IMG/VR virus record: IMGVR_UViG_3300017743_000097
Coordinates: 1-26,873 of that record
DNA from: a virus
Direction: 5' to 3' (one strand)
DNA: 26,873 nucleotides
Positions 1,253-19,702 of the stretch are shown here, one piece after another; position 1 is the stretch's first letter, and each line of letters opens with the position of its first letter. The notes beneath the pieces are model-generated. The model made no database searches, was not told the origin of the DNA, and was given only the letters and a program-made list of their open reading frames with translations. A program made the position numbers and the translations under genes.

Positions 1253-4200
1253 GTGATAAAAACTATAAAATTATCTGATAAATCAGTCCGTAGATTTAAA
1301 TCCCACAAAAAATGGACATACACGACACTTGATCAAGGTGACTCAATTGTACTTGAACAGGGTAACGAAATTCCTATTTTTCTAGATTCAGATGTAAAAC
1401 TTGCAACAGAGCAAAATGATTCTGACTTAAAACTAAGTGTAAAAACAGGAAAAAATATACAAGGAACATTTTTTGATAGTGAGAGTAAGTATTACAATTC
1501 AGATGCCGAACCAATAAATCACGATGGTTCATATCAACGAGTAGTATATAATTCAGTAAAGCATTTATTTTACAATACTTATGGGTTAGGTAATTTAGAA
1601 AATAATTCTTATACCTCACAATACGACAAAAATCCTATGTTTGTATTTGGTTCAGAAACAGGAATCTACAACCCAACAAATATATACTCAGATACAACAG
1701 GTCAAAGTGCGTTGAACGCAGAACGCAGAATACTCGGTGATAAAGTGTCTGTTGTAGAAATTCCATCAGAAATATTTGGTGAGAAAATAAAACCAAGTTC
1801 TTTTAAAATAAATGATTATAGTTCACCGTACGGTGTAATAGAAATGGAAGATGATGGTGCTACAAACATTATGATTGGAAGTAACTCTTTTAATAAAGTA
1901 CAAGAGTTATGGGGTGGTATATCAGAAGAAATAATTCCAGATGAAGGTGAAGTGGTGTTTGATTATTCTGATTTATCACATGGATACAAATTATCTTCCG
2001 CAGGAAATTATTTATTAGTAGGTTCACCGATTGAACCATCTTCACCAAGTGATCTTCAGTCTGGTAGAGCAACACTATACAAAAAAAATAAAGATATTGA
2101 TTCATTTCAAAAAGTCAAAGAATTTTATTCACCCTTTACACAAAATGGTTTATCAATTGAATCACAGAACGATAATACTGGATTTATTGTAACAGAATTA
2201 GGAAATATATTAACTTCAAGTGAATCTATTAACGACAACTTTGGAGTCTCAGTTGAACTTGGTTGGGGAATGTGTGCGATTGGTTCTCCTCGTTCTCATA
2301 TAACCGGTTCTGAAAACAACTCTGCAACCGGTCATGTTTTTATTTATGATAGAAACAAAGGTGGAGTTGAAAACTGGGGTTTAATAAATGTATTGGAAGG
2401 TGAACCTGATAGTGATTTCGGATATTCTGTTTCCACCTATAAAAATTATATGGTAGTTGGTTCACCTGAACTTAATAATTCAAGAGGTGGTGTGTATGTT
2501 TACAAGAAAACTAAAAGAACAAAATCGCATCCTTGGATAAGAACCTCATCGGTTTTTGAATCATACACCCAAGATACTACAGGTGCGTACATAGGAAATC
2601 CACCACAGAATACTGAATCATTCAGATCATACATAGAAAGTAGAAATTTAATTGTATCAAGGAAAATAGCAGAAACTAGATTAGTACTAAAAGAAAAATA
2701 TCAAAACGATAATATAACTGAAGAGCAGTATTATCAACTTTTACCAACGAATGATGATTATAGTTATGTTTATCCATATGATGCAATTTGGTCACCCGAA
2801 CCAACTGAGACTGATTTATTTAATGATGTCGATAAAATACTATTAAAAAAAGAAGAACAAAGGAAACTTTACCAAAAATCTGTATACAAAGATTATCTGT
2901 TTGATGAAAAAACAAATAATTACATACCAAATCCCAACCACGAAGAAAACGAATTGAATAAATGGGCATCACGGTGGAAAATAACAAGTGTTATAGGAAA
3001 TGCAACACCAATTGATACATTTGATTCAGATACAGAGTGCGATGATTTCAAGGTAACAACCTTTGACAACGAAAATCTACACGCTGTCGGTGATTCAAAA
3101 TACCCACACAATGAATACACTGAATCACCTGACTCGGCGATTGGGGATGCTACATGGGATTTAGTTGGATTCATACCACCACCCTCGGGTCGTGTGCATA
3201 GATTTGGAGAAAATGTTAAAATTCACAAAAATACAATATACATAACGAATCCATCGACACCAAATTCGGAGTGTTTTGTATACAAAAAAGAAATAAACGA
3301 ACACGATTGTGAAGTTTGGAAATTAAATTACAGAATTAACGAAACACAAATAGAAGGAGTTGAATCAAACAAAAATCTATCAGATCAGTTTAGGTCGGTT
3401 GATGTTGATGTTTCTGAAAACAAAATAAATATAAAAATTCGTCCAACCACTGATGATCATGTATCTTGGGCATATCAATTTGATAAAGATTTAATTGCGA
3501 ATGTATCACAAGATGAAAATGAGCAGAATTTAGTAAGTGGAACTTCTTTAGAAAAGTGTGATTTTTCATATACTCAGCAAAACCAATACAAATTTTATAG
3601 TCGTTTTAAAAAGATAAACGGAAAAGAAGCAGGTCAGATTTCTTTTAACAGTGGTGATGTTGTAAAAATTAAAGATTTATTGAATGATGATTACTTAAAT
3701 TCAGAAAATTCATCTTTTTACTCAAAGGGTGAGATGGAAGGTTCTCATGTAAGTGGATATTCAGCAAATTCAATCGGATTATCATGGAAAAACTTTAGAG
3801 AAAATGTATCATTTGTTTATCCAGATGTTCCTGCTGGTACTCAAGCATCGTTTATGACTATATATTCTCCTCATGCAAAGTTATCAAATGGTGCATATGA
3901 TCCAATTCATACAATAGCAGAAATAGGAGCACAAGAAACATTAAATGGTAAGATTGTTAGATTAATTTTTAATCAAGGAGATGATAATAAACAAGAACAT
4001 TTTATAGATTTTATTTTTAAAGGAACAATTGAAGGAACACATTATACTCTTAATGAACTTCAAACAAGTTTAGATTTTGCGTGTACACTTCCACCTAACT
4101 TTGGAAAGGTAATTGATATAAATGATATTGATTTTTATGATCCGTTGAAAAATAAATCTGATGCCAGGTTTTACAGTAAAGACGAAAATCAACTATCTTA

Positions 4201-7200
4201 TATAGACTCGTATTCTTCAAACAATTCAATGGCAATATCTTGGAAAAATGTTAGAGAAAATGTGTCTTTTTCATATCCACATTGTGATCCTGGTGTTAAA
4301 GCCTCTTTTATGACAATCTATGCCAACGAAGCAAAGCAGTTGGACGGAAGTTATGATCCAATATATACACTTGCTGAAATTGGAGCCCAAGATACACTAA
4401 ACGGTAAAAAGGTTCGTTTAATAATAAACACAGGATCACCAAGTGAAGCATTTCAAGAATATCACTATGATTTTATTTTTAAGGGTTCAGTCAGTGGAAC
4501 TCATTTTACTATAAGTGAATTACGAGAAAATTTTATTTATGAAAGAACTTTACCACCAAATCTGGGAACACACATAGATTTGGGAGAAGATAAACTTACA
4601 AAAGGAGACATTTTAGATAATGCACAGAATTCTAAAATGTTTAGCAAACCGGCCGATGGATTTTCTTATTTAGACGATGAATGTGATTCTGACGAACTTG
4701 CTTTATCGTGGAAAAACTTTAGAGAAAATGTATCGTTCTCATATCCAAAGTGTAAGTATGGAAACGAACCTGCTTTTATGGCAGTATATTCTAATGAAGC
4801 AAAATTAGATAATGGAATGTATGATCCTGCATATATGTTGGGTGAAATAGGAGCACAAAATACTTTAAACGGAAAAACGGTAAGATTAACACTAAACGCA
4901 GGAGACAAAACCGGAAAAGAATCGTATTATGAATTTGAGTTTCGTGGTACACCACAAGGAACACACTTCACTTTAAGTGAACTAAGAGAAAATTTTGATA
5001 ATAATTACTCGGAGTTACCTGCAAACTTTGGAAAAATTACAAATCTTCGTCATTTAAAATTTGATGATAACTATGGAACTTGTAAATCAAAGTTATTTTT
5101 TAGTAAAGAAGAAAATGGAATGTCTTATGTTGATCCGTTTGCACCGGATAATTCAATGGCACTATCGTGGAAAAACTTCAGAGAGGATATATCATTTAGT
5201 TATCCAAATTGCGTAGTTAGTGGAAATCCATGTTTTATGACAATATATGCAAACAATGCAAAAACTGAAACAGGTGAATATGATCCTGCTTATATTTTAG
5301 CAGAAATAGGTGCAGATAAAGAATTAAATGGAAAAATAGTAAAGTTAATTTTGAACTCAAGCAATTGCAGTTTATCAGATAAAACAAGATATTATGAATT
5401 TATCTTCAATGGTAGTATCACAGGAACTCACTTTACTTTGAATGAATTGTCACATTCACACGAATATGATTGTACGTTACCACCAAATTTAGGTAGTTAT
5501 ACAAAAATAAAGTCTGGTATTTCTAATGATTATTTAGATAGTAAACATGGAGCACTATTTTACTCTAAAGAATCTAATGGATTTTCATATACAAAACCAT
5601 ATGCCGAGCAAGATGATATGGCGGTGTCTTGGAAAAACTTTCGTGAGAATGTTTCGTTTTCATATCCGTCAGTTAAAAGTGGCACTCAACCATCGTTTAT
5701 GACAATTTACTCGAATGAAGCACTTAAAGAAGATGGTACATATGATCCAATTTATACTCTCGCAGAAATCGGAGCCCAAGAAACTCTCGATGGACATCCG
5801 GTAAGATTAACAATGAACACCGGTTCTGTCGGAGGTGAAGAATTTTATTTTGAGTTTGTTTATGCAGGTAGTATCGGTGGTACTCATTTTACACTTAACG
5901 AACTAATGAGTTCACCTTTATTCATACGAATGAAGGATACTATTCACATTGAACCAAAAATATTAGAAACTCCATCAAGAACTTACACAAACTCAATACA
6001 GAAAAAAATAAGAACAAATAAAATAAAAAAGATTAAATCTTTTGGAAGTATACCACATAATACAGGATCAATGGTGAGCATAGAAGATATGCCAGAGGAT
6101 GATTACTTAGAAAATAAACAAAATGCCTGTTTTTATACAAAAGAACCAAATTCAGATTCTTATCTTGAAAACACCGAATACCCAAATGAAATTGGATTGT
6201 CTTGGAAAAATCTCCGTGAGAACATATCATTTACGTATCCAATTACAAATGCAGGTACTACACCTTCATTTATGACTATATATTCAAATTCAGCAAAAAA
6301 TAATGACGGATCGTATGATCCAATACACACACTTGCTGAAATTGGAGCACAAGATACATTAAATGGAGAGTTGGTGCGTCTTACTTTTAATACAGATAAA
6401 GAAAACGAACATTATTATGAATTTATTTTCGATGGAACAATAGAAGGAACTCATTTTACTTTAGATGAAATTGAAACAACTATTTCTACAAGACTAAATT
6501 TACCTTTAATCGTTTATTCACCGTTTCCTAAAAATTGTCGTGTTACTTTGGATAAAAATATAATATCACCTGGAAAACATATGTTATATGTTGGATTGGT
6601 GAATCAAGATGGTGCTTTAATAGGAGAACAGTCTGTTGTAACGTTCTATAATAACCCCCTTGAATACAATATACCTGATAGACACACATTTGTCAAAAAA
6701 CGATATCGTTATCAATACGAAAGTAAAAAGTTTGGGCATTCATTAGATGCAAATGATAAATACCTTATTATAGGTGATCCGTTAGACAGAGAATTTAAAC
6801 CAATAGAAAACCAATACAAAAATTATACGGCGGGTGCAGTTTATGTGTATTCAGTTTCTGATTATACAATAGCATTTAATAAAAAATTATATGGTGAAGA
6901 TGATGTTGAGTTGAATTTTAATTATATGTTTGGTAATGATGTATCTTTACTTGGTAATAACTTTTTAGTTGGTGGTCATGCAGAAGAATACTCAAAAATT
7001 AGCATAAATGACACATCTACCGGTGGAGAAGTTTCTATACAAGATTTAAATAATGGAGCATTAAATTATGCAAACGATACCTACAATACAACTGAAGTTT
7101 TAATCACAAATTTTGAGTATGACTTTGACTCAGAGTATGGTGATTTAAAAATAAAAATAGATATAGGTTCACTTGATTTAGATGAAACAAAATTAAGTGA

Positions 7201-8926
7201 GATGGAGATACGTGCAGACTTTATTGATACTGGTATGAACTCAATAAGAATACACGGATACAAAGGAACTGATACACATATAGCAAATGGAGTGTATTTA
7301 AAAGCAAACAATCCAATAGATGTTTCTTTGGATTGTGATGTATCAACATTTAAGACTACACCAACCTATGTAAATGAAAACGGATACTGTATTTTTTATA
7401 ACGATCAACTTGGTAAATGGGTAATAAGTGATACACCATATATAACCGATGCAAACTTTGCGTATTCCGAGTTGTGTAATAAAAATGAAGTACCAAGTGA
7501 ATTTAATGAGGGGGTGGGTGTATTTGAAAATCAAAAAGTAAAAATAAAACCAAAAAATGATAATATAGGAGAAAACGGATTTTTGACACATGGTATTTAT
7601 CGTGGATATACACATATAGATAAAAATCAAATTTGTATGTATGTCAATAAACTAACAAACACCCCAATCTCAGATAATATTTTATTTGTATATAATGTAG
7701 TAAAGAATGCCGTACAGGGTTATGTTTCTTATTATTCAATCGCAAATGATGAAGTAACCAAAATTAAAAAAATAAAAACAAATAAAAATAAATTTTTTGC
7801 TAGAAAGCAATTTGGATATTCTGTATCATTGAGTACAGATTATATATATGCCGGAAATCCTCTGCTTGGTGATTTTGAAATTGATCAATTAATGACATTT
7901 GGTGGGGCAACTATAACAACAGTTGAAGGTTCATCTAGTTTATTTATGAAATATACAGATTTTCCATCGGGTATATTAGATGATTTAAGAAAATCGGTAA
8001 CTGGAATGGTAATTTCTTATGATCATGCGGCTATTCGTGATAATTTAAAATACTATTTAGGTAATGTATTTTACAAAAATGGAATTTTGTCTATAACCAA
8101 TACCGATGGATACTTTTCAAATATTTTAAATAACAGTGGTGATCGTGGATACGAAATTGAATTCAAAGGTACTCAAACTTTATATGAAAACGAAATCATA
8201 TGTAAAGTAGAACCCCATGAATTTAACACAAGCACAAATCCAACTTCAACCAAAAAAGGAAAAATTCTGTTTGACATAAACGAAGATGGTAAATTTGATA
8301 TTACCGATGTGATTTATATATACCGATTTTTAATGGGAACACTCGTTGTTGATGATGAGGAGGTGTCGGATGATCATGGCATTCCCATTGGAGATGCTTC
8401 TGAAAACTGGCCAACTACTGACCTCGTATTAACTGAATCTGAAGATTTATTATTATTTGATATGTTTGATAATGCTAACATTGAAGATACATTACAAAAT
8501 ACCGAATTAATCAACGAGAAAATTTTACAACTAAATGAAGCAGGTGAATTCGATTTTGATGGAGACGGGATAGCTTCAGAAACAGATGCAAAACTTTTGA
8601 TTAGATATTTTATGGGTAGAACCGGTGAATCTTTAACAAATAATTTAGTGGATAGATTTGGCAATGCAAAAAGAAAAAATGCTTCTGATATCATTGATTA
8701 TCTAAATGAAAAAACTGGTAAATTTTTAGGTGTCGAAATTTTAGACGAATTTTTAAATTATAAGGAAAATGACGCAGTAGATAAATTAGGAAGTTATCTT
8801 GCACCGTATGCCACAACAATTGGATTATATAGTGGATTAGATTTGGTTATGGTAGCAAAACTTGGCAAACCCGTGAAGATACTACCAAACTATCCAATAA
8901 ACTTTTTAGTAAAATTCGACACTTAA
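1253..8926 (+). CDS. Giant virion protein (2557 aa) with FG-GAP-like blades, six-copy domain array and dockerin-like motifs
   Basis: Probable tail or tail-fibre protein. The start is GTG at 1253 (MIKTIKLSDKSVRRFKSHKK); no in-frame ATG exists near it and no Shine-Dalgarno is visible. Order of elements: N-terminal ~240 residues without a recognised fold; FG-GAP-like (integrin-alpha type beta-propeller) units near residues 243, 330, 389 and 651, such as FGYSVSTYKNYMVVGSP; six copies of a ~150-residue domain, residues ~800-1753; three more FG-GAP-like units near 1827, 1893 and 2187; two dockerin/EF-hand-like calcium motifs, DINEDGKFDITD near 2341 and FDFDGDGIASETD near 2434; and a C-terminal TTIGLYSGLDLVMVAKLG module shared with the upstream protein. 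FG-GAP and dockerin elements usually serve extracellular adhesion and calcium binding, so host contact is a reasonable inference. No enzyme motif was recognised. Confidence 0.85.
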   Translation: MIKTIKLSDKSVRRFKSHKKWTYTTLDQGDSIVLEQGNEIPIFLDSDVKLATEQNDSDLKLSVKTGKNIQGTFFDSESKYYNSDAEPINHDGSYQRVVYNSVKHLFYNTYGLGNLENNSYTSQYDKNPMFVFGSETGIYNPTNIYSDTTGQSALNAERRILGDKVSVVEIPSEIFGEKIKPSSFKINDYSSPYGVIEMEDDGATNIMIGSNSFNKVQELWGGISEEIIPDEGEVVFDYSDLSHGYKLSSAGNYLLVGSPIEPSSPSDLQSGRATLYKKNKDIDSFQKVKEFYSPFTQNGLSIESQNDNTGFIVTELGNILTSSESINDNFGVSVELGWGMCAIGSPRSHITGSENNSATGHVFIYDRNKGGVENWGLINVLEGEPDSDFGYSVSTYKNYMVVGSPELNNSRGGVYVYKKTKRTKSHPWIRTSSVFESYTQDTTGAYIGNPPQNTESFRSYIESRNLIVSRKIAETRLVLKEKYQNDNITEEQYYQLLPTNDDYSYVYPYDAIWSPEPTETDLFNDVDKILLKKEEQRKLYQKSVYKDYLFDEKTNNYIPNPNHEENELNKWASRWKITSVIGNATPIDTFDSDTECDDFKVTTFDNENLHAVGDSKYPHNEYTESPDSAIGDATWDLVGFIPPPSGRVHRFGENVKIHKNTIYITNPSTPNSECFVYKKEINEHDCEVWKLNYRINETQIEGVESNKNLSDQFRSVDVDVSENKINIKIRPTTDDHVSWAYQFDKDLIANVSQDENEQNLVSGTSLEKCDFSYTQQNQYKFYSRFKKINGKEAGQISFNSGDVVKIKDLLNDDYLNSENSSFYSKGEMEGSHVSGYSANSIGLSWKNFRENVSFVYPDVPAGTQASFMTIYSPHAKLSNGAYDPIHTIAEIGAQETLNGKIVRLIFNQGDDNKQEHFIDFIFKGTIEGTHYTLNELQTSLDFACTLPPNFGKVIDINDIDFYDPLKNKSDARFYSKDENQLSYIDSYSSNNSMAISWKNVRENVSFSYPHCDPGVKASFMTIYANEAKQLDGSYDPIYTLAEIGAQDTLNGKKVRLIINTGSPSEAFQEYHYDFIFKGSVSGTHFTISELRENFIYERTLPPNLGTHIDLGEDKLTKGDILDNAQNSKMFSKPADGFSYLDDECDSDELALSWKNFRENVSFSYPKCKYGNEPAFMAVYSNEAKLDNGMYDPAYMLGEIGAQNTLNGKTVRLTLNAGDKTGKESYYEFEFRGTPQGTHFTLSELRENFDNNYSELPANFGKITNLRHLKFDDNYGTCKSKLFFSKEENGMSYVDPFAPDNSMALSWKNFREDISFSYPNCVVSGNPCFMTIYANNAKTETGEYDPAYILAEIGADKELNGKIVKLILNSSNCSLSDKTRYYEFIFNGSITGTHFTLNELSHSHEYDCTLPPNLGSYTKIKSGISNDYLDSKHGALFYSKESNGFSYTKPYAEQDDMAVSWKNFRENVSFSYPSVKSGTQPSFMTIYSNEALKEDGTYDPIYTLAEIGAQETLDGHPVRLTMNTGSVGGEEFYFEFVYAGSIGGTHFTLNELMSSPLFIRMKDTIHIEPKILETPSRTYTNSIQKKIRTNKIKKIKSFGSIPHNTGSMVSIEDMPEDDYLENKQNACFYTKEPNSDSYLENTEYPNEIGLSWKNLRENISFTYPITNAGTTPSFMTIYSNSAKNNDGSYDPIHTLAEIGAQDTLNGELVRLTFNTDKENEHYYEFIFDGTIEGTHFTLDEIETTISTRLNLPLIVYSPFPKNCRVTLDKNIISPGKHMLYVGLVNQDGALIGEQSVVTFYNNPLEYNIPDRHTFVKKRYRYQYESKKFGHSLDANDKYLIIGDPLDREFKPIENQYKNYTAGAVYVYSVSDYTIAFNKKLYGEDDVELNFNYMFGNDVSLLGNNFLVGGHAEEYSKISINDTSTGGEVSIQDLNNGALNYANDTYNTTEVLITNFEYDFDSEYGDLKIKIDIGSLDLDETKLSEMEIRADFIDTGMNSIRIHGYKGTDTHIANGVYLKANNPIDVSLDCDVSTFKTTPTYVNENGYCIFYNDQLGKWVISDTPYITDANFAYSELCNKNEVPSEFNEGVGVFENQKVKIKPKNDNIGENGFLTHGIYRGYTHIDKNQICMYVNKLTNTPISDNILFVYNVVKNAVQGYVSYYSIANDEVTKIKKIKTNKNKFFARKQFGYSVSLSTDYIYAGNPLLGDFEIDQLMTFGGATITTVEGSSSLFMKYTDFPSGILDDLRKSVTGMVISYDHAAIRDNLKYYLGNVFYKNGILSITNTDGYFSNILNNSGDRGYEIEFKGTQTLYENEIICKVEPHEFNTSTNPTSTKKGKILFDINEDGKFDITDVIYIYRFLMGTLVVDDEEVSDDHGIPIGDASENWPTTDLVLTESEDLLLFDMFDNANIEDTLQNTELINEKILQLNEAGEFDFDGDGIASETDAKLLIRYFMGRTGESLTNNLVDRFGNAKRKNASDIIDYLNEKTGKFLGVEILDEFLNYKENDAVDKLGSYLAPYATTIGLYSGLDLVMVAKLGKPVKILPNYPINFLVKFDT
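3650..6511 (+). repeat. Array of six diverged ~450-base coding repeats
   Basis: Six units lie within the giant gene at about 3650-4099, 4100-4561, 4562-5026, 5027-5488, 5489-5930 and 6062-6511. Each encodes, in order, a [FL]xSK segment, SWKN[FVL]RE[ND][VI]SF, a YP motif, FMTIYSN-like, YDPxYxLAEIGAQxTLNG, VRLxxN, and GTHFTLNEL. The SWKN motif recurs at residues 844, 996, 1152, 1305, 1459 and 1650, a period of 152-156 residues. The last unit is set off by an extra ~40 residues rich in Lys/Arg/Ile. Copies are clearly homologous at protein level but strongly diverged at DNA level, so the duplications are old. I do not recognise the domain family. Confidence 0.9.
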
Positions 8927-9559: not shown

Positions 9560-10090
9560 ATGCAAAATGAATCCTATTGTTTAGGATTAGATATTAGTTC
9601 AACTGTTGTAGGTTATTGCGTATCTAGTTCCAAAGAAAAAATACTTGATGCTGGATATATTGATATCCAAAAAGAAAAAACCACCAAGAACAAAGCACAT
9701 AAAGTTGCAGAGTACCTTGATCCACGTTCAATTGATCCGTCTATCATAATTGTAGAAGATACATTAAGTGGTTTTGGTGGAGGACGAACAAGTCAGCAAA
9801 CTATTGTAAAACTCGCAAAGTGTAACGCAGTAATAAGTTATGTAATAGAAGCACTATATGAAGTACCTGTTAATCATGTTAATGTATCAACTTTACGTAA
9901 AGCAGTATTTGGTAAAAGTCGTGAAAAAGGAGTTGATAGTAAAACATTTGTACGTGAACAACTAGAGAAAAAGATTGATTTAACTGAATTTATTGTCTAT
10001 AATAGTAGAAAAAATTATGATAAAAGAAACTACGATATGTTGGACGCAACGGTAGCATCATTATATCACTGGCATACTATTCAAGATTAA
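9560..10090 (+). CDS. RuvC-like Holliday junction resolvase / RNase H-fold nuclease
   Basis: 176 residues. The RNase H-fold acidic residues of RuvC-type resolvases are visible: Asp11 in LGLDISSTVVGY, Glu66 in IIIVEDTLSGF, and Asp159/Asp162 in YDMLDATVASLYHW. Length matches bacterial RuvC (about 170 residues). The expected role is metal-dependent cleavage of four-way junctions or branched DNA during recombination-dependent replication and before packaging; T4 itself uses the unrelated endonuclease VII (gp49) for this. The gene heads a tight operon with primase and the gp47/gp46 nuclease, and its stop shares a base with the primase start. No Shine-Dalgarno is visible. Family assignment is good; the exact substrate is inferred. 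Confidence 0.8.
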   Translation: MQNESYCLGLDISSTVVGYCVSSSKEKILDAGYIDIQKEKTTKNKAHKVAEYLDPRSIDPSIIIVEDTLSGFGGGRTSQQTIVKLAKCNAVISYVIEALYEVPVNHVNVSTLRKAVFGKSREKGVDSKTFVREQLEKKIDLTEFIVYNSRKNYDKRNYDMLDATVASLYHWHTIQD

Positions 10091-11016
10091 TGGGGATTTC
10101 CGAGCAAAAACTATATGCTTTATTACAAAAGGTGTTAGGTGAAGGTAAAATCGTCTCTAAAGACGAAGCAATGTTTGTGTGTCCGTTTTCTCATCATCGT
10201 AAACCAAAGTTGGCAGTTAATCTTACAACACAGCGGTGGCAAAGTTGGATTGATACAAACGCAAAAGGTCGTAGCATCTTTTCGTTATTCAAACGAATGC
10301 AAGTGCCAAGCAATTATTTTGCGGAGTTGTCTAAAATTGTTAAACTACCGAAAAACACTCAACTTGCTGATACCGAAGAGCAATTTGTATCATTGCCTTA
10401 CGAATTTAAAAGATTAACTGAAACACATACTGATTTTTCTTATTCCAAAGCAATGAAGTATTTAAAAAATCGTGGAATAGAATCGTATGACATTGAAAGA
10501 TACGACATAGGATATTGTGACAAAGGAGATTATGCTGGAAGAATTATTGTTCCTTCGTTTGATGCAGACAATAAATTAAATTACTTTCTTGCAAGAGATT
10601 TCACAGGAACTGCATATTTGAAGTACAAAAATCCACCGGTAAGCAAAGATGTTGTAGTTTTTGAGAATCAAATAGACTTTTCAGAACCTCTTATTTTGTG
10701 TGAAGGTGTATTTGATGCAATGGCAATCCGCAGAAATGCCGTTGCATTGCTTGGAAAGAACATTCCTAATAAACTTAAAATGCGTTTGATAGAACATAGT
10801 GTAAAAGAAGTTAGTATTGTATTAGATAACGATGCATATAAAAATGCGTTGTGTATGTCCGAGACGTTGATGAACGACAATATCCGAGTTAGATTAATTA
10901 AAATGGGAAACGAAGATGCGGCGGACTTAGGATTTAAAAAGATTATTCATAAAATTAAAGATGCAAACCTTCTTGATTTTAGTGAATTGATGAAACAAAA
11001 ATTATGCATGAATTAA
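10090..11016 (+). CDS. DnaG-like TOPRIM primase
   Basis: 308 residues; makes RNA primers for lagging-strand synthesis. The N-terminus has a remnant of the DnaG zinc-binding (CHC2) domain: CPFSHHRKPKLAVN at 31-44. The distal Cys pair of the usual domain is absent, with WQSWID in its place. A DnaG-type core follows (YLKNRGIESYDIERYDIGYC, 124-143; GRIIVPSFDADNKLNYFLARD, from 150). The TOPRIM domain has Glu205 in ILCEGVFDA and Asp246-x-Asp248 in IVLDNDAY, the metal-binding residues. It lacks the C-terminal helicase-binding domain of bacterial DnaG, as is common in phage primases. The start codon overlaps the resolvase stop (TAATG) and its end overlaps the gp47 start by 13 bases, so translation is probably coupled. 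Confidence 0.82.
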   Translation: MGISEQKLYALLQKVLGEGKIVSKDEAMFVCPFSHHRKPKLAVNLTTQRWQSWIDTNAKGRSIFSLFKRMQVPSNYFAELSKIVKLPKNTQLADTEEQFVSLPYEFKRLTETHTDFSYSKAMKYLKNRGIESYDIERYDIGYCDKGDYAGRIIVPSFDADNKLNYFLARDFTGTAYLKYKNPPVSKDVVVFENQIDFSEPLILCEGVFDAMAIRRNAVALLGKNIPNKLKMRLIEHSVKEVSIVLDNDAYKNALCMSETLMNDNIRVRLIKMGNEDAADLGFKKIIHKIKDANLLDFSELMKQKLCMN

Positions 11017-11708
11017 AGACCAAGATTAAAAATGTTGAAAAAGTTTATCACCTTGCAGACATTCATATACGAAATGTAAAAAGACACACCGAGTATTCAT
11101 TGGTATTTGAAAACTTTTACGAACAAGTTAAAAATGATAATTACGAAAATGCGGTAATTTTTATTGGTGGTGATGTTGCTCATGCCAAAACAGAAATGAG
11201 TCCTGAACTTATCAAGCAGATTTCTTCTTTTTTTCGTGAGTGTGCCAAACTACATCCAACGGTTGTAATAGCAGGTAATCATGATTGTAATTTAAATAAT
11301 CCTGATCGTCTTGATGTATTATCTCCCATTATGGATATGATGGATGATGATAATCTTTTTTATCTTAAAAACAGTGGTTTATATAAAATAGGTGATGTTG
11401 CATTTGGTGTGTTTAGTATATTAGATGATCCAGAGAATTATATTTCAGGTTTAGATATAAATGACCCAAGCATTAAAACTAAAATTGCAGTTTATCATGG
11501 TGCAGTAAAACGTAGTATGACAGACATTGGGTATGTTGTTATGGGTGGTGACATTGAACTTCCTATGTTCAACGGATACGATATAGTGATGCTAGGTGAT
11601 ATTCACAAGTATCAAGTATTACAAGAGTATCAAACTGAGCATAGATTTGTTCCTGAAAGCAAAATAGATTCATATAAACTAGATGGATGGGATGTTTGCG
11701 ATGACTAA
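11004..11708 (+). CDS. 47: gp47-like (SbcD/Mre11) recombination nuclease, N-terminal catalytic part only
   Basis: 234 residues; T4 gp47 has about 340. All metallophosphoesterase motifs are present: DIH (Asp19, His21), GGDVAH (Asp57), GNHD (Asn92, His93), YHG (His165) and MLGDIHK (Asp199, His201). The family forms a two-metal nuclease that, with the Rad50-like gp46 ATPase, processes DNA ends for recombination. The protein stops shortly after the last metal motif (DGWDVCDD), before the conserved segment that normally follows (a YSGS/IQQNHGE type motif). That segment occurs instead at the N-terminus of the protein encoded from 12605. The gene is therefore split, with a glycosyltransferase-like gene between the halves. 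The catalytic residues are intact, so the product could still work if the two parts associate. Confidence 0.85.
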   Translation: MHELKTKIKNVEKVYHLADIHIRNVKRHTEYSLVFENFYEQVKNDNYENAVIFIGGDVAHAKTEMSPELIKQISSFFRECAKLHPTVVIAGNHDCNLNNPDRLDVLSPIMDMMDDDNLFYLKNSGLYKIGDVAFGVFSILDDPENYISGLDINDPSIKTKIAVYHGAVKRSMTDIGYVVMGGDIELPMFNGYDIVMLGDIHKYQVLQEYQTEHRFVPESKIDSYKLDGWDVCDD

Positions 11709-12615
11709 ATTTTTAGTAAAGTGCAGAAACATTGAGATTGGTGATATATTGTTTGCAAGTAGTATTGCAAAAAAACTAAAACACGAACACAAAGATTGTA
11801 CCGTAGATTTTGATTTAAATTATTTGCAACCATTGGAACTTCTGCAAAATAATCCATATATTGATAATGCATATTACAAAGAAAATACAGAAACATACGA
11901 TAAAATTATTAATGTTACAGAAACCCCTCATACATTGGACCCATATAAATCAGCAGTATCTCAGTTTCAACAAATGGCAAATATTAAAAGTTCAGACGAT
12001 ACCTTTGAAATTTTTACCAACAAAGTTTCAGACTATGCACTTGGTCGTAGTATGACTGAACTCGTTGAAATTGGTGAATGGAATTCATCTTTCATAAAAG
12101 TGTGTTATGTCATGGATTGGGAACGAAAAAGTTTTCTTTATACAGAAGACGAATATGAAAAGGCGGAAGATGAAAACTACGGAAATAATTCTCGTAATAC
12201 GCACGACATATTAAAAGCGATGTATGATCCTGAAATCATGTTGTTTGCAATTGGAATAGATTCAAAAGTTTCAAAAGCATTTCCTAGTATAAATTCTACC
12301 AGTAAGTTTTCGTTTACTGCTAGTTTGATGAAAAATTCACATTACGTCGTTGGTCCTGAAGGATGTTTGACTAATATGTCATCTGCACTTGGTGTACCAA
12401 CTATAATTACCACCGATTATATTCACAAAACATATGGACCCAAAGGAATCACCTGGCAAAACAATGGACGTGATTTAAACAACCTTGAAACAAGAACACC
12501 TTTTTTAGGACCACTTAATTATTTTCCAAATGGAAATCATATTCATTTAAGTCCTTATTTAACAGATTTTGAGGTAGGTGATAGTATTTTAAAGATTGTA
12601 AAGAATGGAAGATAA
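11701..12615 (+). CDS. GT9/heptosyltransferase-like glycosyltransferase inserted in the gp47 gene
   Basis: 304 residues from the ATG at 11701 (MTKFLVKCRNIEIGDILFAS); an in-frame ATG at 11683 would add six residues and overlap gp47 more deeply, so I prefer 11701. The N-terminal GD-I-L-F-A-S segment followed by a helix resembles the GT-B fold of heptosyltransferases. The segment GPEGCLTNMSSALGVPT (218-234) matches the nucleotide-sugar-side motif of GT9 enzymes (G-x-E-G/S-x-x-x-H/N-x-x-x-x-L-G-V-P-T). It could transfer sugars to phage DNA, virion proteins or host glycans; nothing here decides the substrate. It overlaps the 3' end of the truncated gp47 by 8 bases and the start of the next gene by 11. 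I see no homing-endonuclease or intein motif. Assignment moderate. Confidence 0.55.
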   Translation: MTKFLVKCRNIEIGDILFASSIAKKLKHEHKDCTVDFDLNYLQPLELLQNNPYIDNAYYKENTETYDKIINVTETPHTLDPYKSAVSQFQQMANIKSSDDTFEIFTNKVSDYALGRSMTELVEIGEWNSSFIKVCYVMDWERKSFLYTEDEYEKAEDENYGNNSRNTHDILKAMYDPEIMLFAIGIDSKVSKAFPSINSTSKFSFTASLMKNSHYVVGPEGCLTNMSSALGVPTIITTDYIHKTYGPKGITWQNNGRDLNNLETRTPFLGPLNYFPNGNHIHLSPYLTDFEVGDSILKIVKNGR

Positions 12616-15205
12616 AGAAAAATATGTAAAAATAAAACGACACAACTCAAATAAACCTGTGGTCGTTTATTCAGGAAGCATGATTCAACAAAATCATGGT
12701 GAAAAGCCGTTTGGTCATGGATATGTGCTATGGGACTTGAAAAACAATGATCATGTACATCATCAAGTTCATAATGATTATGGCTATTATACGATAGAAG
12801 TTCGTGACGGAAAATGCGTAAGTGATCTCAGCAAGTTACCAAACAAAGCACGACTTCGTGTTAAAGTGTACAATACAACTGCAACTGAAACAAAAGAAAT
12901 AATTGCGGACATCCGAAAACGAACAAGTATAAGTGATTTAAATGTAACTAGGTGCGACGCGATATCAGAAGCAAAAAAGTTTGATAGAGATAATAAATTT
13001 GATTTTGGTGACATATCATTGGTTCAAGTTCAAAATGATTTGATTGAAGATTACCTGCGTAGAAACTTTGTGGTGGACGATGATCAAATACAAACTGCAC
13101 TTGATATCAACAAAGAAACAAATGAAAAGTTAGTAGTAAAAGAAGTTCTTAAAAATTGCATATGGAAACCGAAAAAATTTGAATTCGGAAATATGTTTAG
13201 TTACGGAGACGGAAATGTAGTAAATTTTTCTAACATGAAAAGTGTTATGGGATTGTTTGCTTCCAATGCAAGTGGTAAAAGTAGTGTCATGAGTGCATTA
13301 AGTTTTTGTTTGTTTGACAAATGTGATCGTGCATTTAAAGCAGCTCATGTACTAAACACACAAACAGAATCATTTTATTGTAAATTAAATTTTGAAATTT
13401 CCGGAATAAATTATCACATTGATAGAACCGCAACAACAAAAAAGAATGGAGATGTTACTGTCGTTGTAGACTTTTGGAAAACAAACGAAAACGGAGAAAC
13501 AGTATCACTAAACGGAGAACAACGAGCAGGTACAAATGCCATCATAAGAGACCACGTTGGATCATATGAAGATTTTGTTCTTACTACATTAAGTTTACAA
13601 AACAACAATGCTATCTTTATAGATAAAAGTCAAAGTGAACGAAAAGACTTACTTGCTCAGTTTATGGGAATTGATACATTTGACCAACTTCATACGACTG
13701 CATCAGAAGACATTAAAGAAATCAATGCTTTACTTAAAAGATTTAATCGTGAAGATTTTGACGAAACTCTTGCTGAAGTAAACGAAAAGTTAAATAAAGT
13801 TAATGAGCAATATGAAATTCAAGATAGCAAAACAAATGTTGCATTACTTGAGCAGAAAAAATTAAATAAAAAGCTTGCGGATAAAAATGCAAAGTTTAAA
13901 AATTGCTCATTTGATGAAGACTCCGTTGATATTGATAAATTGGAATTTGAAAAAAAGAATTTAAATGAAAGACTAGAAGTTGCTAATGACAACAGAGAAA
14001 GTGAATCTCTCAGAAAAAAAGAACTTGTCAATAAGAAATCACAACAAGCAACTGAACTCTTAAAATTAAGTGACGTTGAAGAAAACTACATCGATGCTTT
14101 AAAAATAAAAGAAAATATTACTTCAGTTGAAAAAGATTTAGCAGTATTAAGAACTTCTGTAAACGCAAAGTTAGATAAACTAAAACACTACGATAGTCAC
14201 GAATATGATCCTAAATGTAAATTTTGTGTTACTAATTCTAAAAACTTAATTGAAAGTGCTGAACAAACAAAAGACGAGTTAGATAAAGATAAAGCAGCGG
14301 CAGATCAACTAGTCACGCAAAAAAATAAGTTATCTGAAAAACTTAATGAATACAAAGACATTGAACTGCAATATCAAAGACTAGGTGAGTTGAAAAATGA
14401 AAATACTCAAATTAATTACGAAATCAGTGAAGCAGATTCTAGAGTCCTTGCACTTGGTAGTATGATAGAGTCTCTTGAAAAAGATATTGTTATCAACGGA
14501 AACAACATAAAAGCATATTATGAGTGTAAAGATATTATAGAATTCAATAAAAAACTTCAATTAGAAGTTGATGAAATTAAAACTAAATTGATTAAGGTAA
14601 ATGAAGTTGCAAATTTAGAAAACGAAAACCTGCAAACATTATTTGGAGAAGTAAAAATTGCTGAAAAGGAACACGAAGATGTAGTTGCATCAATCGAAGA
14701 AGCAAAAGGATATGAACGAAAAAAACGAGGATACGAGTTGTATCTTGATGCAGTCAAACGTGATGGTATTTCATATGAACTCATTTCTAAAACAATTCCA
14801 AGCATTGAAAGTGAAGTCAATAATATTCTTTCTCAGATTGTTGATTTTGGTATGCAACTTGAAATGGACGGAAAACACATCTATTCAAAGATTACATATG
14901 AAGACCGTCATTGGCCACTTGAAATGTGTAGTGGAATGGAACGTTTCATTAGCAGTATCGCAATGCGAGTAGCACTTATCAACGTAAGTAGTCTACCACG
15001 TTCTAATTTCCTCGTTATTGACGAAGGGTGGGGTTCGTTAGACGGAGACAACATAAGTAGTGTATTTAATCTGTTTACCTATCTAAAGGGGCAGTTTGAG
15101 TTCATAATGGTTATAAGTCATTTGGACGTAATGAGAGATATGGTAGATGAGATTATTGAAATTCAAAAAGAAGGTTCTTTTAGTAAGATAAAATACGAAG
15201 CATAA
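12605..15205 (+). CDS. 46: gp47 C-terminal segment fused to gp46 (SbcC/Rad50-like ATPase)
   Basis: 866 residues. Residues ~1-180 carry the segment that normally ends gp47/SbcD: VVYSGSMIQQNHGEKPFGHG (20-38), a capping-type domain, and an acidic stretch near QNDLIEDYLRRNF. From ~186 the Rad50/gp46 fold begins (WKPKKFEFGNMFSYG), with Walker A FASNASGKSS (218-227), Q-loop LQNN (331-334), long coiled coils, a zinc-hook CKFC (Cys538, Cys541), signature MCSGMER (774-780), Walker B FLVIDEGWGSLD (802-813) and H-loop His839. The role is ATP-driven control of end-processing nuclease activity in recombination-dependent replication. T4 gp46 is about 560 residues, so this is longer both by the fused region and by longer coils. 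A stop codon lies two codons upstream in frame, so ATG 12605 is fixed. The gp46 part is certain; the fusion call rests on motifs. Confidence 0.88.
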   Translation: MEDKEKYVKIKRHNSNKPVVVYSGSMIQQNHGEKPFGHGYVLWDLKNNDHVHHQVHNDYGYYTIEVRDGKCVSDLSKLPNKARLRVKVYNTTATETKEIIADIRKRTSISDLNVTRCDAISEAKKFDRDNKFDFGDISLVQVQNDLIEDYLRRNFVVDDDQIQTALDINKETNEKLVVKEVLKNCIWKPKKFEFGNMFSYGDGNVVNFSNMKSVMGLFASNASGKSSVMSALSFCLFDKCDRAFKAAHVLNTQTESFYCKLNFEISGINYHIDRTATTKKNGDVTVVVDFWKTNENGETVSLNGEQRAGTNAIIRDHVGSYEDFVLTTLSLQNNNAIFIDKSQSERKDLLAQFMGIDTFDQLHTTASEDIKEINALLKRFNREDFDETLAEVNEKLNKVNEQYEIQDSKTNVALLEQKKLNKKLADKNAKFKNCSFDEDSVDIDKLEFEKKNLNERLEVANDNRESESLRKKELVNKKSQQATELLKLSDVEENYIDALKIKENITSVEKDLAVLRTSVNAKLDKLKHYDSHEYDPKCKFCVTNSKNLIESAEQTKDELDKDKAAADQLVTQKNKLSEKLNEYKDIELQYQRLGELKNENTQINYEISEADSRVLALGSMIESLEKDIVINGNNIKAYYECKDIIEFNKKLQLEVDEIKTKLIKVNEVANLENENLQTLFGEVKIAEKEHEDVVASIEEAKGYERKKRGYELYLDAVKRDGISYELISKTIPSIESEVNNILSQIVDFGMQLEMDGKHIYSKITYEDRHWPLEMCSGMERFISSIAMRVALINVSSLPRSNFLVIDEGWGSLDGDNISSVFNLFTYLKGQFEFIMVISHLDVMRDMVDEIIEIQKEGSFSKIKYEA

Positions 15206-15248: not shown

Positions 15249-16292
15249 ATGGAAAATTCCGAAGAAAATCAAGAAGTTCAAGAAACCCTTATAAAAGCAG
15301 GATTGCGTAAAGGATACTTTACACTTGTAGAAGGTGTATATGATCCTGGTATTTTGAAAGCAGTATTTCTTGCAGGAGGTCCTGGTGCAGGTAAATCAGC
15401 AGTTGTAGATACGGTTTTTAATACGACACCTGAAGTAAAGTCATTGACATCAACTGGATTAAAAATTGTAAATAGTGATAGTTCATTTGAATACCTTCTA
15501 AAAAAAGCAGGACATAGTTTAGATTTAGGTTCTTTAGAAGATGAAGTTTTTAAGAAAATAACAAGTGATGATCCGAATTCAATTCGGTCACGTGCCAAAA
15601 ACATTATGCTTAAACAATACGAGAATTACAAGCATGGTAGATTGGGTGTAATTATTGATGGAACGGGTGATGATTATTCTAAAATATCAAAACAAAAAAA
15701 AGAGTTGGAAAAACTAGGTTATGATTGTTATATGGTATTCGTTAATACAACACTTGAAGTTGCACAACAAAGAAATGCGTTTCGTGCAAGAAAACTTCCA
15801 CGTAAAATTGTAGATACAATATGGAAAGATGTTCAAAAGAATATGGGAAAATTTCAAAGTTCATTCAAGCAGAATTTCACGATCATTGATAACTCAGAAG
15901 ATTTAAGAAGCAAAACAAAACCAGGTAAACTTAATCTTGCTCCTTTTATATTAAAAGCAACTGCACGGTTTGTCGGAAAACCAATTAAAAATCCTATTGG
16001 TAAACAATGGATTACATTAATGATGAAGCATGATAAAATGAGTAAGAGTGGTGATAAACGAAATCGTATGAACGAAGAACTTGATATGGTATCTATGGAG
16101 AATGTAGTTTTACCGATGGATTTAGAAAGACACTTAAGTCGTAGTATTCATGTAATAACAAAATTTAAACTAAATGAAAAAAGAAATCTTGCAGTTTTAT
16201 CAAGATTGGTTGAAAGTCTTAATCTAAACAGAAACCAGTTAATAAAATATTTTCATCATATAAAAACTTTGAAATTTAAAGGAGAAAAGTAA
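15249..16292 (+). CDS. Zeta-toxin-like P-loop kinase with C-terminal extension
   Basis: 347 residues. The N-terminal half is a P-loop kinase: Walker A GGPGAGKS (43-50), a catalytic-type Asp77 in VNSDSSFEYLLKKAG, VIIDGTGDD (134-142) for the second strand, and an Arg-rich lid (RNAFRARKLPRK, 175-186). This order matches the zeta-toxin/UDP-N-acetylglucosamine kinase and polynucleotide-kinase group. Residues ~215-347 are a basic extension that I do not recognise (NPIGKQWITLMMKHDKMSKS). It could phosphorylate a sugar nucleotide, a small molecule or a nucleic-acid 5' end; a ligase-like enzyme encoded two genes on makes end repair possible, but this is inference. The stop overlaps the next start by one base (TAATG), so the genes are coupled. 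No antitoxin-like partner is evident. Confidence 0.7.
   Translation: MENSEENQEVQETLIKAGLRKGYFTLVEGVYDPGILKAVFLAGGPGAGKSAVVDTVFNTTPEVKSLTSTGLKIVNSDSSFEYLLKKAGHSLDLGSLEDEVFKKITSDDPNSIRSRAKNIMLKQYENYKHGRLGVIIDGTGDDYSKISKQKKELEKLGYDCYMVFVNTTLEVAQQRNAFRARKLPRKIVDTIWKDVQKNMGKFQSSFKQNFTIIDNSEDLRSKTKPGKLNLAPFILKATARFVGKPIKNPIGKQWITLMMKHDKMSKSGDKRNRMNEELDMVSMENVVLPMDLERHLSRSIHVITKFKLNEKRNLAVLSRLVESLNLNRNQLIKYFHHIKTLKFKGEK
16278..16284 (+). promoter_or_regulatory. Ribosome binding site
   Basis: AAAGGAG lies 7 bases before the ATG at 16292, inside the end of the kinase gene. It supports this start. Confidence 0.7.
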
Positions 16293-17170: not shown

Positions 17171-19702
17171 ATGAATACAAAAATGTCAGAATTGATGTCC
17201 GAAGATTTGACAACTTTTATGGTTGGTGATATCTTACAAGAGGCAAAAATTAAAAAGGTAATTGGAATCTATCCCGGTAGATTTCAACCTGCTGGCATTC
17301 ACCACTATAAGACATATAAGTGGTTAGATGGAAAGTTTGACGAAGCATGGGTTGCTACAAGTGATAAAACAGATTCAACAAAAAGTCCATTGAATTTTAA
17401 AGAAAAGAAAATGATATGGACAAAACATGGTGTAAAAAAAGTTGTAAAGGTAAAAAACCCATATGTGTGTGAAGAGTTGTTAAAAAAATACGATCCAAAT
17501 ACAACTGCTGTTATTTATATATTTGGAGAAAAAGATGCAGGAAGACTTAAAACTACAAAAGCAGATGGATCACCTGCATATTATCAGTCGTATGATAAAA
17601 ATAAAAATAACTTAAAACCATTTGGTGAACATGGATATTTCATAGTTGCTCCTCATGTCAGTATAAAGGTTCTTGGTAAAGAAGTAAGTGGAACAAGGAT
17701 TCGTGATTTGCTTGGTTCACCAAAACATGACAATATGACTAAAACCCAAGCATTTGAAGAATTATTTGGGTGGTACGATGAAAAAATATTTAATTATCTT
17801 ACTAAAAAGTTTGGAACACTTTTTGAAAACGAAGAGTTATTTGAAAGTTTCTTGTATGAATATCCTAAGTTTGAAAATCTTGTTAACGAAATAAGTACAA
17901 TATCTGCACTTAGTGCTTCACTTGTAGATGATGGTCCTGCGGGTTATTTTCCAAAACAATCATATGAAACTCACACAAAAAATCGTGCTGAACAACTTGG
18001 ATATGAGTTGCTTGATTATGTTGTTGATAAAAACGGTAAAGGAAGAAATTCAGATTATAGAGAATGGGGTGATTATGCAGGACCTGTACCGGCAGTTTCA
18101 TTTTATCCTGCCGGAGATATTGATGTGGGAACTCCCACCAACCAAATTGATACTGACAAATCATTGTCAGCACATGACCAATATAAAAACTTTATTTCAA
18201 AGGTTGCTGAAACTGCTGGATACAAGTTAGTAGATTTTGTAGGTTCTGAAAAGTCAATTAGAAAAAGAGATGAAAAGGGTAACGAGAATTTAAAATCTGG
18301 AAACACAATTGATGCATCAAAAGAAGATAAATCAGGAGATGAAGAAATAGAAAAAGGTGTAGATGGTCATTCTATAAAAGAATCGATAGAATCAATAGTA
18401 AACGATTATGTAGAATTAATTACGGAAGGAGGTGCAGCTGGTCACATGAGTCATCCGTTTGATGATAAAGATTTAACTTTTGCTGATTTAAAAGAAATGA
18501 TTCGTAGGTCGTTGGCAGGAGAACTTAATGTTGAAAAAGAAGTTACCGAAAAATTAGATGGTCAAAATTTGATGTTTTCTTGGAAAGATGGAAAGTTGGT
18601 CTCGGCGAGAAATCAAGGTCATTTAAAAAACGCAGGTGCAAATGCTCCCGATGTAACTGCATTTGAAAGTATTTTTTCGGATCGTCCTGAAAACATTCGT
18701 GACGCATTTGTAAGTGCAGTAAAAGATTTAGAGTCGGCAATTTCAAAGTTATCCGATGCACAAAAACATAAAGTATTTAAAGAAGGTGAACGATTTATGA
18801 ATATAGAGGTGATGACACCTGCAACACAGAATGTTATTCCTCAAAATGTAGATATGTTGGTTTTCCACGGAACACAAGCATACGATTCTGCCGGAAAACC
18901 AGTTTCAGAAGATTCGGATGGAAACGATATAACAGGTGAATTAAAAGATTCTGCTCGTATGTTAAGTGGAATGCTCAAACAAATCAATGCAGATGTTCAA
19001 AGTCGGTATTCGTTGAACGCACCTATTGTCGTGGAACTTCCTAAAAGTAAAACATTCGGTGATTCTTTTAAAAAATACTCTGCGATGCTTGATAAACTTA
19101 AAAAAGAATTTAAATTAAAAGACAATGATAAAGTAATGAAGTATCACGATGCATGGTGGAGAAATCTTTTGAATAAGCAACAAAGCAAATTAAAAGAAAT
19201 ATTTCCTGCAAAGGTATATGAAGCACTTATAGGTCGTTGGGCATATAACGATAAATCAAACAAAATTACAACGATACGAATGGACTTATCTGAACAACCC
19301 AAGTTAAAAGATTGGGTTAATAAATTTGAAAAGGAAGATATCGTAAAACAATTTGAAACAAATATGTGGCCGTTTCAATTCATATTTTTGAAACTTGGAG
19401 CAGAAGTTCTGCAAAATGTTAAAGGATTTGTGGCTGCTGGAGGTAGTGATGATATAGCAAAAGCACTCGACGCACACACCAAAACTTTAAAAGCAAAAAA
19501 GATTAGTTCGGTGGAATCTCCTGAAAAGTTTAAAAAGGATATTGCAAAACTCTTCAAAAACCTTGATAGATTAACTGCAATTGGTGGAACAAAAGCAATC
19601 GCACCAAGTGAAGGTGTGGTATTTCAATACAAAGGTGGGACATATAAACTAACAGGAACATTTGCTCCTATAAATCAAATTATGGGAATAATGAGGTTTT
19701 AA
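17171..19702 (+). CDS. Fusion of NMNAT-like nucleotidyltransferase and ligase-like covalent nucleotidyltransferase
   Basis: 843 residues. Residues ~28-215 are a cytidylyltransferase/NMNAT-like domain: IGIYPGRFQPAGIHHYKTYK (31-50; the usual second His-Gly-His is altered to a GIHHY form) and the family's SGTRIR motif (173-178). Residues ~235-400 are a charged linker. From ~400 to the end is a ligase-type domain that begins GGAAGHMSHPFDD and carries motif I EKLDGQN with candidate nucleophile Lys461, a motif III-like FMNIEVMTP (542-550), motif IV SEGVVF (813-818) and motif V TYKLTG with Lys826. Covalent nucleotidyltransferases with these motifs (DNA/RNA ligases, capping enzymes) form a lysyl-NMP intermediate. 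Plausible roles are NAD synthesis or recycling coupled to nucleic-acid sealing. The fold assignments are reasonable; substrate and coupling are inferred. Confidence 0.72.
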   Translation: MNTKMSELMSEDLTTFMVGDILQEAKIKKVIGIYPGRFQPAGIHHYKTYKWLDGKFDEAWVATSDKTDSTKSPLNFKEKKMIWTKHGVKKVVKVKNPYVCEELLKKYDPNTTAVIYIFGEKDAGRLKTTKADGSPAYYQSYDKNKNNLKPFGEHGYFIVAPHVSIKVLGKEVSGTRIRDLLGSPKHDNMTKTQAFEELFGWYDEKIFNYLTKKFGTLFENEELFESFLYEYPKFENLVNEISTISALSASLVDDGPAGYFPKQSYETHTKNRAEQLGYELLDYVVDKNGKGRNSDYREWGDYAGPVPAVSFYPAGDIDVGTPTNQIDTDKSLSAHDQYKNFISKVAETAGYKLVDFVGSEKSIRKRDEKGNENLKSGNTIDASKEDKSGDEEIEKGVDGHSIKESIESIVNDYVELITEGGAAGHMSHPFDDKDLTFADLKEMIRRSLAGELNVEKEVTEKLDGQNLMFSWKDGKLVSARNQGHLKNAGANAPDVTAFESIFSDRPENIRDAFVSAVKDLESAISKLSDAQKHKVFKEGERFMNIEVMTPATQNVIPQNVDMLVFHGTQAYDSAGKPVSEDSDGNDITGELKDSARMLSGMLKQINADVQSRYSLNAPIVVELPKSKTFGDSFKKYSAMLDKLKKEFKLKDNDKVMKYHDAWWRNLLNKQQSKLKEIFPAKVYEALIGRWAYNDKSNKITTIRMDLSEQPKLKDWVNKFEKEDIVKQFETNMWPFQFIFLKLGAEVLQNVKGFVAAGGSDDIAKALDAHTKTLKAKKISSVESPEKFKKDIAKLFKNLDRLTAIGGTKAIAPSEGVVFQYKGGTYKLTGTFAPINQIMGIMRF

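What the first reader, a model, noticed from the sequence alone, without database searches (positions are those of the whole stretch)
11004..15205. Mre11-like gp47 split by a glycosyltransferase gene, with its C-terminus fused to Rad50-like gp46
Seen: the 234-residue metallophosphoesterase has every metal motif but ends at DGWDVCDD, just after GDIHK. The following conserved gp47/SbcD segment (VVYSGSMIQQNHGE...GHG) is found ~0.9 kb downstream, as residues 20-38 of a protein that continues in frame into a full gp46 (Walker A, zinc hook, signature, Walker B). A GT9-like gene fills the break, and all junctions overlap by 8-11 bases. Known: in Mre11/Rad50 complexes the C-terminal part of Mre11 contacts the Rad50 coil base. 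Inferred: a catalytic half in trans and a capping/Rad50-binding half in cis would give a rearranged, possibly still working, nuclease complex. The ancestor may have been a gp47-gp46 fusion later invaded, or a split followed by fusion.
Basis: partly seen in the sequence, partly recalled or inferred. Interest (0 to 1): 0.87.

Follow-up and report, generated by a model that had tools for sequence, protein, structure and literature searches.

The report
Phage Mre11-Rad50 fusion split by glycosyltransferase
In one group of marine viruses of bacteria, the gene for a DNA-break-repair machine that is a single protein in related viruses has been cut in two by a sugar-transferase gene, and evolution has kept all three pieces intact, so the two halves probably still work together.

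Summary
The window has an Mre11-like nuclease half (11004-11708), a GT9/heptosyltransferase-fold gene (11701-12615) and a protein that starts with the rest of Mre11 and continues into Rad50 (12605-15205). It is not an assembly artefact. At least 31 nucleotide-distinct loci from one marine phage clade keep the same split, with an invariant 8-base and an 8-, 11- or 14-base gene overlap and strong purifying selection on all parts. More than 100 related loci carry the whole thing as one uninterrupted Mre11-Rad50 ORF of about 1,050 aa, with only an 11-18 residue loop where the marine clade is cut. So a single-chain fusion (a known type, cf. Mimivirus R555) was fissioned. Six clade contigs of 115-170 kb hold no other copy. 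A 484-kb phage (LR756508) is split at the same loop by a putative homing endonuclease. The tree makes this a second, independent fission, yet both N-halves carry a similar extra ~22-residue tail. Best explanation: a working 'gene in pieces' nuclease, as in phage Aeh1 NrdA, here with a metabolic gene as the interrupter. Reassembly of the halves is inferred, not shown. New variant of a known kind.

The parts
10090..11016 (+). upstream primase-like gene, overlaps the Mre11-N gene by 13 bases
   Evidence: phrog_47 DNA primase E=1e-42
11004..11708 (+). Mre11-N: catalytic phosphoesterase half, 234 aa, all metal motifs
11637..11705 (+). extra C-terminal tail EHRFVPESKIDSYKLDGWDVCDD, absent from intact fusions; similar in register to the tail of LR756508
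   Evidence: low pLDDT with a short helix
11701..12615 (+). GT9/heptosyltransferase-fold glycosyltransferase gene inserted in the break; ATG overlaps the Mre11-N stop by 8 bases
   Evidence: fold match WaaC E=1e-8; relatives in phage glycan clusters; invariant overlap
12605..15205 (+). Mre11-C plus Rad50 in one chain, 866 aa
12605..12649 (+). extra N-terminal head MEDKEKYVKIKRHNS, absent from intact fusions
12656..13144 (+). rest of Mre11: last strands of the phosphoesterase domain (YSGSMIQQNHGE), then the region in capping/Rad50-binding position
   Evidence: aligned with the same region of intact fusions; capping/HLH naming is from position and literature (PMC3175470)
13259..13285 (+). Rad50 Walker A (ASNASGKSS)
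14216..14227 (+). zinc-hook CKFC
14927..14947 (+). ABC signature CSGMERF
15014..15043 (+). Walker B/D-loop VIDEGWGSLD

Best explanation
An ancestral single-chain Mre11-Rad50 fusion gene was interrupted, in the loop between the last metal-binding motif (GDIH) and the next strand (YSGS) of the nuclease domain, by about 1 kb that now carries a GT9-like glycosyltransferase gene. The result is a three-gene array with overlapping ends, probably translationally coupled: Mre11-N, GT, Mre11-C-Rad50. Shown: intact relatives, clade-wide conservation of the split, conserved motifs, purifying selection, no other copy in the contigs held. Inferred: the catalytic half binds non-covalently to the Mre11-C-Rad50 chain and rebuilds a working Mre11-Rad50 nuclease; the extra tail and head at the break help docking; the GT works separately on host or phage glycans.
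For: Two halves together cover the whole 1065-position model of intact fusions with almost no gap or excess (N-half 3-215, C-half 205-212 to 1064) in six contigs of 115-170 kb, each with one copy only and one metallophosphoesterase. More than 100 related loci are one uninterrupted ORF with 11-18 residue loops. 31 distinct split loci, all with the GT, invariant 8-base overlap. Split clade monophyletic, 100% support, nested among intact forms. dN/dS well below 1 for core, tail, GT, head and Rad50. N-half folds with pLDDT above 90 over most of residues 1-205 and matches Mre11. No intron or RNA family in the gap. GT single copy per contig, relatives in phage glycan clusters. Precedent: Aeh1 NrdA split by mobE is fully active (PMC2988022).
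Against: No complex of the halves could be predicted or tested here; the tail is low-confidence in the model of the N-half alone. The first His of motif V is Asp throughout the family, so nuclease activity of the family itself is assumed. Part of the constraint on the last tail codons comes from overlap with the GT start. The contigs are incomplete, so a second copy elsewhere cannot be excluded.
Confidence: 0.8

Rival explanations
1. On origin, endonuclease first: a homing endonuclease gene fractured the fusion and left the tail; in the marine clade the endonuclease was later replaced by the GT gene. The tail is a mobile-element-derived docking segment, as proposed for Aeh1 NrdA.
For: LR756508 is cut at the same loop by a Zn-finger gene with a PD-(D/E)xK end of the TnsA/gp4 type. 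The two tails align in register without gaps (p~1e-5; any-offset p 0-0.008). They come from separate fissions (AU p=0.0012). Aeh1 NrdA-a tail VKKSEVDKFKL resembles VPESKIDSYKL (nominal p 0.004-0.14).
Against: No marine member with an endonuclease in the gap was found. Only one endonuclease-split case is known. Tails are short and could be similar by convergence. Heads are not significantly similar (p=0.18). A search of phage records with the tail alone was uninformative.
Confidence: 0.35
2. On origin, direct insertion: the GT gene itself came in from a phage glycan cluster, with no endonuclease involved, and tail and head arose from the junctions.
For: GT relatives (31-40% identity) sit in such clusters with head-to-tail overlaps; the GT is the only insert ever seen in this clade.
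Against: Does not explain why LR756508, a separate fission, has a similar tail.
Confidence: 0.4
3. The two Mre11 halves are rejoined into one chain (intein, intron or trans-splicing).
For: The interrupted halves would join in a way that restores the intact loop.
Against: Extra segments of 23 and about 15 residues are far too short for a Hint domain; no Rfam match in 10800-13200; GT ORF fills the gap with overlapping ends.
Confidence: 0.02
4. The split has disabled Mre11; only the Rad50 part or neither is still used.
For: The nuclease domain is cut inside its fold.
Against: N-half keeps every catalytic residue, and its core evolves under strong constraint in the pairs tested (dN about 0.004-0.1 versus dS 0.17-2.2).
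Confidence: 0.07
5. Assembly or sequencing artefact.
For: None found.
Against: Same junctions in 31 nucleotide-distinct loci from many metagenomes.
Confidence: 0.01

Closest known systems
Mre11/Rad50 (SbcD/SbcC) single-chain fusions, e.g. Mimivirus R555 (Yoshida et al. 2011, PMC3175470)
   Same: Same order Mre11 then Rad50 in one chain in the intact relatives; Asp in place of P. furiosus Mre11 His206; reported as abundant in aquatic viral metagenomes.
   Different: Here the chain is cut inside the nuclease domain by an unrelated gene.
Aeromonas phage Aeh1 nrdA-a/mobE/nrdA-b (genes-in-pieces; PMC2988022; Crona et al. 2011 cited in PMC3267527)
   Same: Enzyme gene cut by an inserted gene, no intein or intron, extra tail and head at the break; proven active there.
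   Different: Interrupter there is a homing endonuclease and the enzyme is ribonucleotide reductase; here a glycosyltransferase and Mre11-Rad50.
T4 gp47/gp46
   Same: Mre11-like and Rad50-like partners of a T4-type phage (portal and terminase of the window are T4-like).
   Different: T4 has two whole proteins divided at the Mre11/Rad50 boundary (own knowledge); here the cut is inside Mre11 and the boundary is fused.
LR756508 (484-kb uncultured phage)
   Same: Mre11-Rad50 fusion cut at the same loop with a similar tail.
   Different: Interrupter is a putative homing endonuclease; a separate fission on the tree.
GT9 heptosyltransferases (WaaC, WaaF)
   Same: GT-B fold match E=1e-8.
   Different: Sequence only about 10% identical; substrate unknown; sits inside a recombination gene.

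Membership tests
Mre11-Rad50 fusion family | N-terminal metallophosphoesterase with DxH, GDxxH, GNHD, H, G(H/D)xH motifs | tested here: met
Mre11-Rad50 fusion family | Rad50 ATPase with Walker A, zinc hook, signature, Walker B | tested here: met
Mre11-Rad50 fusion family | both parts in one chain | tested here: not met
   met in more than 100 relatives, not met in this clade: cut inside Mre11
genes-in-pieces (Aeh1 NrdA type) | one ancestral ORF cut into two by an inserted gene, no intron or intein | tested here: met
genes-in-pieces (Aeh1 NrdA type) | inserted gene is a homing endonuclease | tested here: not met
   GT9 fold; met in LR756508 only, as a putative endonuclease
genes-in-pieces (Aeh1 NrdA type) | the two halves assemble into active enzyme | not testable with these tools
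   single-chain prediction only; constraint is indirect support
split-intein fractured genes | intein halves at the break | tested here: not met
   extra segments of only 23 and about 15 aa
GT9 glycosyltransferase | GT-B fold closest to heptosyltransferases | tested here: met
   (model pLDDT 80)
GT9 glycosyltransferase | Pfam Glyco_transf_9 match | tested here: not met
   none of 23 members

The most novel reading that the evidence does not exclude
The same loop of Mre11 is a recurrent fracture site hit by mobile elements that leave a shared protein-docking tail; after the fracture the slot was taken over by a metabolic cargo gene (a glycosyltransferase) while the tail-mediated two-piece nuclease was kept as the phage's only Mre11-Rad50.
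Probability: 0.35. Interest if true: 0.78.

Novelty: new variant of a known kind. Interest (0 to 1): 0.63.

Why it matters
It is a natural separation of the Mre11 active site from its capping and Rad50-binding parts, with intact single-chain relatives as built-in controls. That makes it directly testable how little covalent linkage the Mre11-Rad50 machine needs. It also shows a metabolic gene, not a selfish endonuclease, stably occupying the middle of a repair gene across a phage clade, and two independent fissions at one site with similar tails, which bears on how mobile elements and cargo genes remodel phage core genes.

Tried and rejected
Homing-endonuclease relatives of the LR756508 middle gene in IMG/VR gave only distant Zn-finger/HNH-type genes, not fractures. 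Bacillus phage Moonbeam, which has a related NUMOD3 endonuclease, shows no split gene or similar tail. T4 gp39, cut by mobA, has no similar tail. Searching phage records with the tail alone was uninformative. GT relatives in bacterial genomes: none confirmed. Close relatives of the LR756508 N-half: none. Single origin of both fissions: rejected by AU test, with the caveat of long branches for LR756508 and L130. Intein, intron and assembly artefact rejected as above.

Full report
Observation. The upstream product is an Mre11/SbcD-type phosphoesterase; its model is confident over most of residues 1-205 and its best structural matches are Mre11 and SbcD. The downstream 866-residue product begins with the Mre11 segment YSGSMIQQNHGE and continues into a Rad50 ATPase with every motif. 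The gene between them has no Pfam or PHROG match of note, but its predicted fold is closest to the GT9 heptosyltransferases WaaC and WaaF. The conserved GT start is 11701, so the overlaps are 8 and 11 bases.

Reality. In IMG/VR the same split occurs in 31 nucleotide-distinct loci; the Mre11-N/GT overlap is 8 bases in all, and the GT/Rad50 overlap is 11 in 25, 14 in 4 and 8 in 2. Core, tail, GT, head and Rad50 parts all have dN far below dS in the pairs tested. This rules out an assembly join.

Ancestral state. More than 100 loci, from marine and freshwater viral contigs and Microcystis phage Mel-JY01, hold one uninterrupted ORF with Mre11 followed by Rad50, and a 735-kb uncultured phage shows the same junction. 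Some contigs recur in that count. In these the loop between GDIH and the YxGS strand is 11-18 residues. A model of the intact proteins is covered by the two halves of the split clade almost exactly: positions 3-215 and about 208-1064, with no second copy in six contigs of 115-170 kb and no other metallophosphoesterase. On a tree of 59 sequences the split clade is one clade (100%) nested among intact forms. So the fusion came first and the cut later. Mre11-Rad50 fusions as such are known (Mimivirus R555; PMC3175470), including the Asp that replaces a motif-V His, which is also seen here.

A second fission. LR756508, a 484-kb phage, is cut at the same loop. Its middle gene has zinc-finger and HNH-family stretches and a TnsA/gp4-like PD-(D/E)xK end, like an annotated NUMOD3 endonuclease of phage Moonbeam, so it is a putative homing endonuclease. 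The tree places LR756508 next to an intact relative (100%), and holding it with the marine clade is rejected (p=0.0012); both rows are long branches, so some caution remains. Yet both N-halves end in an extra segment that aligns without gaps (EHRFVPESKIDSYKLDGWDV / EEMVVEEDELEKYLNSGWKL; p about 1e-5 in register; 0-0.008 at any offset). No intact relative examined has it. The tail of Aeh1 NrdA-a, next to a real homing endonuclease, has a partly similar stretch, but this was noticed after the fact and is only suggestive.

Where the GT came from. Its only other relatives found (31-40% identity) lie in phage glycan-synthesis clusters with other glycosyltransferases, epimerases and sugar-nucleotide genes, away from Mre11-Rad50 (cluster genes read by eye from their sequences). 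No bacterial relative was confirmed. The marine contigs hold one copy, the one in the split.

How it probably works. All metal ligands are on the N-half. The last strands of the nuclease domain and the region in capping and Rad50-binding position are on the Rad50 chain. The cut lies in a loop that varies in length between intact relatives, so non-covalent reassembly is plausible, as proven for Aeh1 NrdA (PMC2988022). Gene overlaps suggest translational coupling. The tail is predicted disordered with a short helix when modelled on the N-half alone, as expected if it folds on its partner, but this is inference.

Verdict. A real, conserved, functional-looking fission of a known kind of fused enzyme by an unusual interrupter. 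New variant of a known kind.

Noticed in passing
LR756508.1 122577-126748 (L002 6001-10175): Same Mre11-Rad50 loop broken independently by a putative PD-(D/E)xK homing endonuclease, with a similar tail.
   Followed up: yes
L244-L258: Distant relatives of the GT lie in large phage glycan-synthesis clusters (GT2-like enzymes, epimerases, an HldE-like kinase/nucleotidyltransferase pair in L258).
   Followed up: partly
window 15249-16292: Gene right after Rad50 is a P-loop kinase with Zeta_toxin/AAA_33 similarity and a match to phrog_12810 of unknown function.
   Followed up: no
window 1253-8926: 2557-residue protein with FG-GAP repeat and dockerin-like matches, possibly a host-contact protein.
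   Followed up: no
L109 1-1798: 4-kb contig in which the Mre11-N frame runs into a ribonucleotide-reductase-like sequence; probably a misassembly.
   Followed up: partly
PP395634.1 183173-186373: Mel-JY01 gene annotated only as 'AAA domain containing protein' is an intact Mre11-Rad50 fusion.
   Followed up: yes
window 17171-19702: 843-residue protein with only weak cytidylyltransferase-like similarity.
   Followed up: no
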